Below are positions 17,003-20,720 of a DNA stretch of 40,529 nt, in pieces. The translations under genes and the position numbers were made by a program. The stretch's first letter is position 1. Every line of letters starts with the position of its first letter. The notes beneath the pieces are model-generated. The model was given only the letters and a program-made list of their open reading frames with translations, did no database searches and was not told the DNA's origin. The DNA is from Alphaproteobacteria bacterium (lineage in GTDB: Bacteria; Pseudomonadota; Alphaproteobacteria; Rhizobiales; JAJRRF01): positions 1 to 40,529 of the forward strand of contig JAJRRF010000124.1 of the NCBI GenBank assembly GCA_024279735.1. The letters are read 5' to 3'.

Positions 17003-17749
17003 TTACGCTGCATTTACAATATCGGCATAACCGTTTTTCTCAAGCTCAAGTGCCAAATTTTTGTCACCTGACTTGATGATCTTTCCATCAGACAGGACAT
17101 GCACCTTGTCTGGCACAATATAGTCCAGCAAACGCTGGTAATGGGTAATCACCAGCATGGAACGCTCAGGACTGCGCAAGCTGTTGACACCATCCGACAC
17201 AGTTTTCAGGGCATCAATATCAAGCCCCGAATCAGTCTCGTCCAGCAGGCAAAGGCCGGGCTCAAGCAGCACCATTTGCAGAATTTCCATGCGTTTTTTC
17301 TCGCCGCCGGAAAAACCGACATTGAGCGGGCGGCGCAGCATATCCTTGGATACGCCCATAATCTCGGCCTTGGCATTAATCAGCTTGATAAAATCAGGTG
17401 TTTTCATGGGCTCTTCACCGCGCGCCTTGCGCTGTGAATTGATCGCGGTGCGCAAAAAGGTCATGGTCGCCACGCCAGGCACTTCCATTGGGTACTGGAA
17501 TGCCAGAAAAACCCCCGCCGCAGCTCGCTGGTCAGGTGTCATGGCCGTCAAGTCCTGCCCATCCCAAAGAATTTCACCCTTGGTAATGTCATAACCAGGC
17601 TTGCCCGCAATCAGGTAGGACAAAGTGGACTTGCCTGCGCCGTTTGGCCCCATAATAGCATGAACTTCCCCTTTTGGGATTGTCAGGTTCATCCCCTTAA
17701 GAATTTCCTTGCCGCCAACTGTAGCGTGAAGCTTTTTAATTTCTAACAT
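17003..17749 (-). CDS. sufC: SUF complex ATPase SufC
   Basis: SufC is the soluble ABC-type ATPase of SufBC2D. Walker A GPNGAGKS is at residues 34-41, the signature is FSGGEKKRMEI at about 148-158, and Walker B is LCLLDETDSGLDID. The 248 residues are normal. AGGA precedes the ATG by 9 bases. It is unusual that sufC does not follow sufB directly: about 1.25 kb with a small ORF, a broken TPR gene and an inserted element separates them. It may therefore depend on a secondary promoter or readthrough. Confidence 0.97.
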   Translation of the reverse strand: MLEIKKLHATVGGKEILKGMNLTIPKGEVHAIMGPNGAGKSTLSYLIAGKPGYDITKGEILWDGQDLTAMTPDQRAAAGVFLAFQYPMEVPGVATMTFLRTAINSQRKARGEEPMKTPDFIKLINAKAEIMGVSKDMLRRPLNVGFSGGEKKRMEILQMVLLEPGLCLLDETDSGLDIDALKTVSDGVNSLRSPERSMLVITHYQRLLDYIVPDKVHVLSDGKIIKSGDKNLALELEKNGYADIVNAA

Positions 17750-17830: not shown

Positions 17831-17894
17831 ACTGTCATACTGCGCCCTAGAGAAACATCACGGCATGGATACCGCATTTCTGTGGTATGACAGT
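17831..17894. repeat. 64-bp nested inverted repeat upstream of sufC
   Basis: ACTGTCATAC (17831-17840) is the exact reverse complement of GTATGACAGT (17885-17894). Inside, AGAAA pairs with TTTCT and CGG with CCG, so a long interrupted hairpin is possible. It lies 82 bases upstream of the sufC start. It is not followed by a T tract on either strand, so I do not call it a terminator. It could be a leader structure or a tiny insertion element. Confidence 0.5.
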
Positions 17895-17999
17895 GAGAGA
17901 TATGCTCTATTTGGTATGCCCTAAATACACCAGCATGCAAGGACACGCTCCTTGACCGACAAATTTGAGAATACAGTACAATCCATCAAAACCTTGAAT

Positions 18000-18862
18000 C
18001 TATGACTTTCCACACTGTTTCTTTGTAATACAATAAATCCGAAACCTAAAATAATCCTGATCAGATTTATCTTTTGATAATGCAATAGCTTTTTTGGTAA
18101 CTCCCCAGCTTGTTTTAGGTGTATTAACTAATTGATAAATAACGATAAAAATAAATCGTTATTTTTAAAACCACTAAAATATGATCATTTTTCCATTAAA
18201 AAACAGGATTTTTAGACTGTATTCCGCTTGAAAACGCGTATTTACGTGAAAAAAGAAGCTGGGGAGTTACCTTTTTTGTACATAACCACGGCCTCATCAT
18301 TTCGGTTTAAGTTATCCAAAATAGTAGCAACCCCTCTATAATGGTCTGGATTTTTAGAATCTAGACCAATCAATTTTCTAAACTCAACCAAAGCCTTCTT
18401 CTTTTTTCCTTGAAACGAATAAACATATGCAATTAAGTTATAAGAAGTGAAATCTTTTGGATTATTATCAATTGCCTTACCGTAATCCTCTATCTTTTTA
18501 CGATAATTCGTTGCATTTTTTTTAATCTGTGCTTTCGTTAATGGAGCTGCCAAGGCTTGGGATATTTTGTAGGTTCCAGCCCGCCACCGATAGATTTCAC
18601 CACGTCGAATCTTTGACAACCCTTTTTGTTCCAACAAAAGATTACAAGATTCAAACGATTCTTTAAAAGAACCATTTTTACACATCGTAGAGGCTCCACG
18701 GTAACACGCAGCCATTGCTTTTTTCTCATCTTTTTCTTCTTTACAGATTTTTGTATCTTTTTTAACCTGTAATTAAGTCAGTCAACCACTGACTTGCCTG
18801 AACTGAGTTGATAGAGACAACCAACATAACAAAAAACTAAGAAGAATTTTAACTGAACCCAT
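18000..18862 (-). pseudogene. Exported TPR protein gene, disrupted by an inserted element and two frameshifts
   Basis: The surviving open part (18242-18715, 157 codons) encodes TPR-like helices such as DFTSYNLIAYVYSFQGKKKK and a Cys-rich start (MAACYRGASTMCKNG). It ends abruptly in KKGNSPASFFT, which is encoded by the element at 18096-18271. Past that element the reading continues in frame as KKAIALSKDKSDQDYFRFR and stops at TAG 18000-18002, giving a normal TPR helix. Upstream, an ATG at 18862 opens a signal peptide (MGSVKILLSF). One missing T in the T-run near 18833 and one extra base near 18767 shift the frame. With both repaired, a signal peptide ending SINSVQA joins SQWLTDLITG and then the TPR part. 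The gene is probably inactive. Confidence 0.75.
18096..18271. mobile_element. 176-bp MITE-like element with perfect 16-bp terminal inverted repeats
   Basis: GGTAACTCCCCAGCTT (18096-18111) is the exact reverse complement of AAGCTGGGGAGTTACC (18256-18271). Both ends are flanked by TTTTTT (18090-18095 and 18272-18277), consistent with a 6-bp target duplication or insertion into a T run. The interior is AT-rich, has no ORF and holds a 10-bp hairpin (AAATAACGAT with ATCGTTATTT, around 18137-18164). Removing the element plus one T6 restores the reading frame of the surrounding TPR gene. The element looks non-autonomous; the mobilising transposase is not in the window as far as I can tell. Confidence 0.8.
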
Positions 18863-19048
18863 TACCTTGTCACCTTTTACCCTAATCTATACACAGACAC
18901 ATTCATCTTTATTGACTTCACCCACGTCATAGTTGGACTTGTTCCAACTATCCATGCTGTGAACGCTCATCCCTAAAACCAATTTATCAACCAAGACCAA
19001 AGCCTTCAGAATGGATCATTGGATATCCAATGATGACGGCTAGAGGGA
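18863..19048. other. Gap between the broken TPR gene and the small membrane ORF, with palindromes
   Basis: It contains a perfect 20-bp palindrome at 19015-19034 (half-site ATCATTGGAT) and a 7-bp stem (AGTTGGA 18931-18937 with TCCAACT 18943-18949). No T-rich tail follows on the minus strand. The palindrome lies 14 bases past the stop of the small membrane ORF. Confidence 0.5.
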
Positions 19049-19225
19049 TTATCTCTTCATTCTATATTTCTTCCAGCCCCATAAAACACTAAAAACAACG
19101 AGAGCCAGCCCAAATACAACGCCATAAATAGCAACCTGAAGATCTATTGTTGCCATCAAATGAGACTGGAGTTCCCATTTAACACCATAGTCTCCAAAGC
19201 AATTTATGATTCCCAGTTGCATCAT
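19049..19225 (-). CDS. Small single-span membrane protein in the SUF operon (58 aa)
   Basis: It starts at the ATG at 19223-19225, one base after the sufB stop (19227-19229), with GGGG just upstream overlapping the end of sufB. The longer frame to 19258 would lie inside sufB. The product has a polar N-terminus of about 26 residues, one hydrophobic span (VAIYGVVFGLALVVFSVLWGW) and a basic C-terminus KKYRMKR. That charge pattern predicts an outside N-terminus and cytoplasmic C-terminus. I know no SUF component of this kind. It could be a real accessory protein or a chance ORF in inserted DNA. Confidence 0.45.
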   Translation of the reverse strand: MMQLGIINCFGDYGVKWELQSHLMATIDLQVAIYGVVFGLALVVFSVLWGWKKYRMKR

Positions 19226-19226
19226 C

Positions 19227-20720
19227 TTACCCCACACTTCCCTCAAGGCTAATGCCAATCAGCTTTTGGGTTTCGGCCATGAACTCCATTGGCAGATGTT
19301 GCAGTACATCACGGACAAAGCCGTTGACGATCAGGGCGACGGCCTCTTCCTCGTTCATGCCGCGCTGCATACAGTAAAACAGCTGCTCTTCTGAAATTTT
19401 TGAGGTGGTGGCCTCATGTTCAATGGTGGTGCTGGCATTCTTGGCCTCAATATAAGGCACAGTATTGGCACTGCACTGGCTGCCAATCAACAGACTGTCG
19501 CACTGGGTAAAGTTCCTTACGCCCGTTGCTTTCTTGTGGGACGAGACAATACCGCGATAGGTGTTGGACGATTTTCCAGCACTGATGCCTTTGGAAATGA
19601 TACGGCTGGAACTGTTCTTGCCCAGATGGATCATTTTTGTACCGCTATCGACCTGCTGCATCCCGTTGGAAATCGCAATTGAATAGAACTCACCGCGTGA
19701 ATTTTCGCCGCGCAGAACGCAAGACGGATATTTCCAGGTAATCGCAGACCCCGTTTCCACCTGAGTCCAGGAACATTTGGAGTTCTTGCCACGGCAATCA
19801 GCCCGCTTGGTGACGAAATTATAAATCCCGCCCTTGCCATTGGCATCGCCAGGATACCAGTTCTGCACTGTTGAATATTTGATCTCGGCATCATTCATCA
19901 CCACAAGCTCAACAACTGCGGCATGAAGCTGGTTCTCATCACGGCTTGGCGCAGTGCAGCCTTCCAGATAGGACACATAGCTGTCATCTTCGGCAATGAT
20001 AAGGGTGCGCTCAAACTGGCCTGTATTCTGTTCATTAATCCGAAAATAGGTGCTGAGTTCCATCGGACAGCGTACGCCCTTGGGAATATAGACAAAACTA
20101 CCATCAGAAAACACAGCCGCGTTCAGGGTGGCATAAAAGTTATCACTGGTCGGCACAACCGTGCCCAGATATTTACGCACCAGTTCAGGGTGGGTCTGCA
20201 ATGCCTCAGAAATTGGGCAAAAGATCACCCCTGCCTTGGCCAACTCCTTCTTAAAGGTGGTTGCTACAGAAACGGAATCGAACACAGCATCGACGGCCAC
20301 CCTAGGCCTTTCGGACGGCTCAACGCCTGCCAGAATTTCCTGTTCTGCCAGGGAAATACCCAGTTTTTCATAGGCTGCCAAAAGCTGGGGGTCAACCTCG
20401 CCCAGGCTTTTCAGCTTTTCGATATCCTTCGGCTCGGAATAATAATACAAATCCTGAAAATCAATCTTGGGATAGTTCAACAGTGCCCAGTCAGGCTCTT
20501 CCATCGTCAGCCAACGGCGATAGGCCTCCAACCGCCATTCCAACATCCATTCCGGCTCATTTTTCTTGGCAGAAATATATTTTACAATATCTTCGCTCAG
20601 GCCTTTTGGAGCCTTGACAGACTCAATGTCAGTGGAAAAGCCATATTTATACTTATCAACCTCAATGCCCTTGACGGCATCAACGGTATCCTGGTCAATG
20701 TTCTCTTTTACATCTGTCAT
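19227..20720 (-). CDS. sufB: SUF scaffold subunit SufB
   Basis: SufB is the core scaffold on which the cluster is assembled and receives sulfur. Signatures include [36 protein letters not shown], the catalytic-type cysteine in [15 protein letters not shown], and [22 protein letters not shown] near the end. The 497 residues are normal. GGAG lies about 7 bases before the ATG at 20720. It follows the NifS-like desulfurase by about 95 bases. The separation from sufC by an insertion-scarred region is atypical. Confidence 0.97.

What the first reader, a model, noticed from the sequence alone, without database searches (positions are those of the whole stretch)
18000..18862. TPR gene split by an excisable-looking element; reading frame is restored on removal
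Removing 18096-18271 plus one T6 joins MYKK to AIALSKDKSDQDYF in frame and gives a natural stop at 18000. The mature TPR helix pattern makes chance unlikely. This reconstructs an ancestral exported TPR protein inside the SUF operon.
Basis: partly seen in the sequence, partly recalled or inferred. Interest (0 to 1): 0.75.

Follow-up and report, generated by a model that had tools for sequence, protein, structure and literature searches.

The report
IS66-type MITE interrupting decaying TPR gene
A short non-coding jumping element, one of about 60 near-identical copies in this bacterial genome, has landed in an already damaged TPR-repeat gene between two iron-sulphur-assembly genes; the insertion is real and cleanly readable, but it is an ordinary kind of event.

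Summary
A 174-bp element (18097-18270) with 20-bp inverted ends sits in a reverse-strand TPR ORF, flanked by an exact 8-bp duplication, CTTTTTTG. Removing element plus one duplication joins MYKK to AIALSKDK...CGKS and a TAG at 18000-18002, and restores the last TPR repeat. The current tail GNSPASFFT is read from the element itself.

The element is a MITE with about 60 copies. The nine complete ones are 1-4 bases from consensus; eight have perfect 8-bp duplications. The same termini bound a resident IS66-family element (ISBst12-like; about 17 right ends), the likely transposase donor.

Nothing shows excision. The gene is broken a second way: its signal-peptide start lies behind stops and frame changes, so removing the MITE does not restore an exported protein. 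It is not an ancestral SUF gene: none of 29 relatives' sufB-sufC gaps contains it, and no specific homologue turned up in 385 genomes of the class or in GTDB contigs. It is a low-GC orphan. The MITE family seems undescribed but is a known kind of thing.

The parts
18097..18270 (.). 174-bp MITE, no gene, 20-bp terminal inverted repeats with one mismatch (GTAACTCCCCAGCTTGTTTT / AAAAGAAGCTGGGGAGTTAC)
   Evidence: nine complete copies in the genome share exactly these edges; this copy is 1 base from the consensus
18089..18096 (.). 8-bp target duplication, left copy (CTTTTTTG)
   Evidence: perfect 8-bp duplications at 8 of 9 complete copies
18271..18278 (.). 8-bp target duplication, right copy (CTTTTTTG)
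18279..18763 (-). TPR-repeat coding part upstream of the insertion (listed ORF 18242-18715 starts at an internal ATG and ends with 9 codons read from the duplication/MITE, GNSPASFFT)
18000..18088 (-). remaining 3' end of the TPR gene, AIALSKDKSDQDYFRFRIYCITKKQCGKS and TAG stop at 18000-18002 (first base of the first codon lies in the duplication)
18764..18862 (-). 5' part: ATG with a ribosome-binding-like AAGGTGACAAGGTA and a signal-peptide-like start, cut off from the TPR frame by stops and frame changes
17003..17749 (-). sufC
   Evidence: TIGR01978, 351.9 bits
19227..20720 (-). sufB
   Evidence: NF008773, 888 bits

Best explanation
A miniature inverted-repeat transposable element of the IS66 family (ISBst12-like, single-transposase group) was inserted into a lineage-specific TPR-repeat gene lying between sufB and sufC. 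The transposase of resident IS66 copies recognises the ends GTAACTCCCCAGCTT, which the MITE shares, and inserts it with an 8-bp staggered cut that duplicates CTTTTTTG (inferred from ends and duplication; transposition not observed). The 182-bp net gain shifts the frame and ends the protein inside the MITE with GNSPASFFT, deleting the last TPR helix and the C-terminus (shown by sequence). The gene also carries an independent break at its 5' end, so it is best read as a pseudogene (inferred).
For: Exact 174-bp length and 8-bp duplications in 8 of 9 complete copies; 60 MITE left ends in a 3.04-Mb genome; complete copies 1-4 substitutions from consensus. IS66 transposase C-terminus (PF03050) runs into the same terminus on contigs C87 and C233, and the transposase N-terminal region starts just inside the same terminus on C253 and C55, where up to 23 bp match the MITE's right end; 17 IS right ends. 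ISBst12-group ISDge4 has end GTAACTGCTCAGCA, an 8-bp repeat and one ORF (PMC12898284). The joined frame restores a TPR repeat. 5' break seen directly.
Against: No empty site or uninterrupted homologue was found, so the joined reading rests on the duplication and the TPR pattern alone. No complete copy of the IS66 element is assembled; only its two ends are, on different contigs. One complete MITE copy (L008) lacks a duplication. The 5' break could in principle be an assembly error.
Confidence: 0.9

Rival explanations
1. The truncated TPR protein ending in the MITE-encoded tail is a functional, domesticated gene product translated from the internal ATG at 18715.
For: The ORF is open for 157 codons and keeps strong TPR matches; a signal is not needed for an internal role.
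Against: It lacks the original start and signal peptide, the last repeat is cut, the tail is the one any gene would get from this MITE in that frame, and no homologue was found by which to test selection.
Confidence: 0.08
2. The element excises precisely and reversibly, switching the TPR gene on and off.
For: Exact removal restores the downstream frame; IS66 transposase fragments are resident.
Against: The gene would still be broken at its 5' end. No empty site was found. The published ISBst12-group mover kept its donor copies and was called copy-and-paste by its authors (PMC12898284). Every insertion with a target duplication is frame-neutral on removal of element plus one duplication, so restoration is no evidence of excision.
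Confidence: 0.03
3. The MITE sits in a non-coding spacer and the TPR reading on its two sides is chance.
For: An open run of 29 codons is found in 14% of shuffles of this AT-rich DNA.
Against: Several Pfam TPR models pass their cut-offs upstream, the repeat is completed across the junction with the canonical alanine and hydrophobic residues, and both together occur in 0.2% of shuffles.
Confidence: 0.02

Closest known systems
ISBst12 group of the IS66 family (for example ISDge4 of Deinococcus geothermalis, PMC12898284)
   Same: End sequence GTAACTGCTCAGCA against GTAACTCCCCAGCTT here; 8-bp direct repeat; transposase with PF03050 and no separate tnpB-type gene found in the genome
   Different: The window element is a 174-bp derivative without a transposase; the internal about 130 bp do not match the assembled IS ends
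Bacterial MITEs such as MITEPsy1 of Pseudomonas syringae (PMC3189936) and MITECca01 of Cardinium (PMC9769881)
   Same: Short, no gene, ends shared with a resident IS, high copy number (MITECca01) and gene-disrupting insertions with frame change and target duplication (MITEPsy1)
   Different: Those derive from IS5-like and IS982 elements (4-nt duplication for MITEPsy1); this one shares ends with an IS66 element and makes 8-bp duplications

Membership tests
MITE (non-autonomous IS derivative) | Short, non-coding, with terminal inverted repeats | tested here: met
   174 bp, 20-bp ends with one mismatch, no gene
MITE (non-autonomous IS derivative) | Dispersed near-identical copies with target duplications | tested here: met
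   60 left ends, 96-100% identity in the copies scored, 8 of 9 complete copies with 8-bp duplications
MITE (non-autonomous IS derivative) | Ends shared with an autonomous IS in the same genome | tested here: met
   15-23 bp shared with both ends of an IS66 element; whether any IS copy is intact is not shown
MITE (non-autonomous IS derivative) | Mobilised by that transposase | not testable with these tools
   needs a transposition assay
IS66 family, ISBst12 group (parent element) | DDE transposase of PF03050 | tested here: met
   PF03050 C-terminal fragments over the cut-off; DUF6444 match in the N-terminal region
IS66 family, ISBst12 group (parent element) | 8-bp target duplication and GTAA ends | tested here: inconclusive
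   met for the MITE; parent copies are split across contigs, so both flanks of one parent copy could not be compared
IS66 family, ISBst12 group (parent element) | Single transposase ORF without tnpB | tested here: inconclusive
   no PF05717 match in the genome and the transposase start lies close to the left end, but no full copy is assembled
Conserved SUF-operon gene (the TPR gene) | Present between sufB and sufC in relatives | tested here: not met
   0 of 29 relatives

The most novel reading that the evidence does not exclude
The MITE, which as RNA folds into a stem far more stable than shuffles, now acts as a processing or attenuation element between sufB and sufC and tunes the sufB to sufCD ratio, so the insertion was kept for its effect on Fe-S assembly rather than as neutral junk.
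Probability: 0.06. Interest if true: 0.5.

Novelty: new member of a known kind. Interest (0 to 1): 0.27.

Why it matters
It shows an IS66-type MITE at about 60 copies in one genome, where single insertions can be recognised and their original sites read, and it explains an odd protein tail and many contig breaks. MITEs of IS66 origin seem little described: none was found in the papers searched, though those searches were narrow. For the SUF operon it means only that an extra, broken gene lies between sufB and sufC in this lineage.

Tried and rejected
Rfam search of the region: nothing above any cut-off. GTDB-wide scan for relatives of the TPR protein: none confirmed. GTDB-wide scan for the terminus GTAACTCCCCAGCTTNTTT: five unrelated genomes, with no IS66 transposase next to the matches. 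MITE in 398 genomes of the order: only this genome, apart from one marginal 40-bp hit. Looked for gene disruption by the other MITE copies as a positive control: most lie outside long open frames, and the longest open runs were judged by eye to look antisense or spurious, so they gave no control. Promoter-like and terminator-like matches in the region include none in the MITE. A first shuffle test started one base out of frame and was replaced. Gap sizes were wrong for reverse-strand loci and were redone.

Full report
What is there. On the reverse strand, between sufB (19227-20720) and sufC (17003-17749), lies a 1477-bp low-GC stretch (36% against about 50% for the two genes). It contains a TPR-repeat reading frame interrupted by an element with 20-21-bp inverted ends. 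The DNA of the element folds far better than shuffles (z = -5.8).

Edges and duplication. Nine complete copies in the same genome fix the element at 174 bp, beginning GTAAC and ending GTTAC; the base just outside varies between copies. Eight of the nine are flanked by perfect 8-bp direct repeats, all different. In the window the repeat is CTTTTTTG, so the element is 18097-18270.

Frame. Undoing the insertion joins MYKK to AIALSKDKSDQDYFRFRIYCITKKQCGKS and a TAG at 18000-18002. The joined last repeat is recognised as TPR (18.8 bits) while the interrupted one is not. A 29-codon open run alone occurs in 14% of dinucleotide shuffles; the run plus TPR-compatible residues at the junction occurs in 0.17%. 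The present tail GNSPASFFT is the MITE end read in one frame, so any gene struck in that frame and orientation would end almost the same way.

What the element is. The genome (3.04 Mb, 308 contigs) has 60 MITE left ends, and many contigs end inside a copy. The complete copies lie 1-4 substitutions from their consensus, the window copy 1, so the spread looks recent. The same 15-bp terminus bounds a transposase gene: the PF03050 C-terminal part stops at the terminus on C87 and C233, and the N-terminal part begins just inside it on C253 and C55, where up to 23 bp match the MITE's right end. There are 17 such right ends. The end sequence, the 8-bp duplication and the apparent single-gene layout fit the ISBst12 group of IS66, described for ISDge4 with end GTAACTGCTCAGCA and an 8-bp repeat (PMC12898284). 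No tnpB-type gene was found. Mobilisation of the MITE by this transposase is inferred, not shown.

What the gene is. The reading frame with an ATG near 18862, a ribosome-binding-like site and a signal-peptide-like start does not run into the TPR part: stops and changes of frame lie between them. The gene therefore has at least two independent kinds of damage and is most likely a pseudogene. Which came first is unknown.

Is it an old SUF gene? In 29 relatives with an assembled sufB-sufC gap, the gap held no TPR match; about half the gaps are 24-125 bp, and others hold unrelated DNA. The N-terminal half of the TPR protein matched nothing in 385 genomes of the class except this one, and a GTDB-wide scan confirmed no relative. 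The best matches elsewhere in the order are generic TPR proteins, about 33% identical over one or two repeats. The gene is an orphan of this lineage as far as these collections show.

Verdict. The claims of excision, of export restored by one removal, and of an ancestral SUF component are not supported. It is a new family of a known kind of element making an ordinary insertion.

Noticed in passing
17859-17900; relic 18949-18962: REP/REPIN-like palindromic repeat CACGGCATGGATACCGC, 119 sites in the genome with up to 2 mismatches, often as inverted pairs about 64 or 100 bp apart; a copy and a partial inverted copy flank the TPR gene.
   Followed up: partly
L092, L094, L096 (C54, C107, C145) and L091, L093, L098 (C119, C70, C177): Two other repeated sequences, ending in AACTGTCC(G/A)AACTATTG and AAAGTCCACAGATCAGGTTGCTTTATC, abut MITE or IS66 copies at different internal positions near contig starts: nested insertions or assembly joins.
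   Followed up: no
G000:C206:115-160: Two MITE/IS right-type ends lie head to tail with no spacer.
   Followed up: no
19049-19258 (-): Small ORF with one hydrophobic stretch overlapping the end of sufB; no Pfam or NCBIfam match.
   Followed up: partly
L112, L113, L124, L126 (relatives): In several relatives the sufB-sufC gap holds unrelated extra DNA, including cupin-like and Uma2-like reading frames by eye, so this gap tolerates cargo.
   Followed up: no
L008 (G000:C234:13375-13553): The only complete MITE copy without a target duplication, perhaps after recombination between two copies.
   Followed up: no
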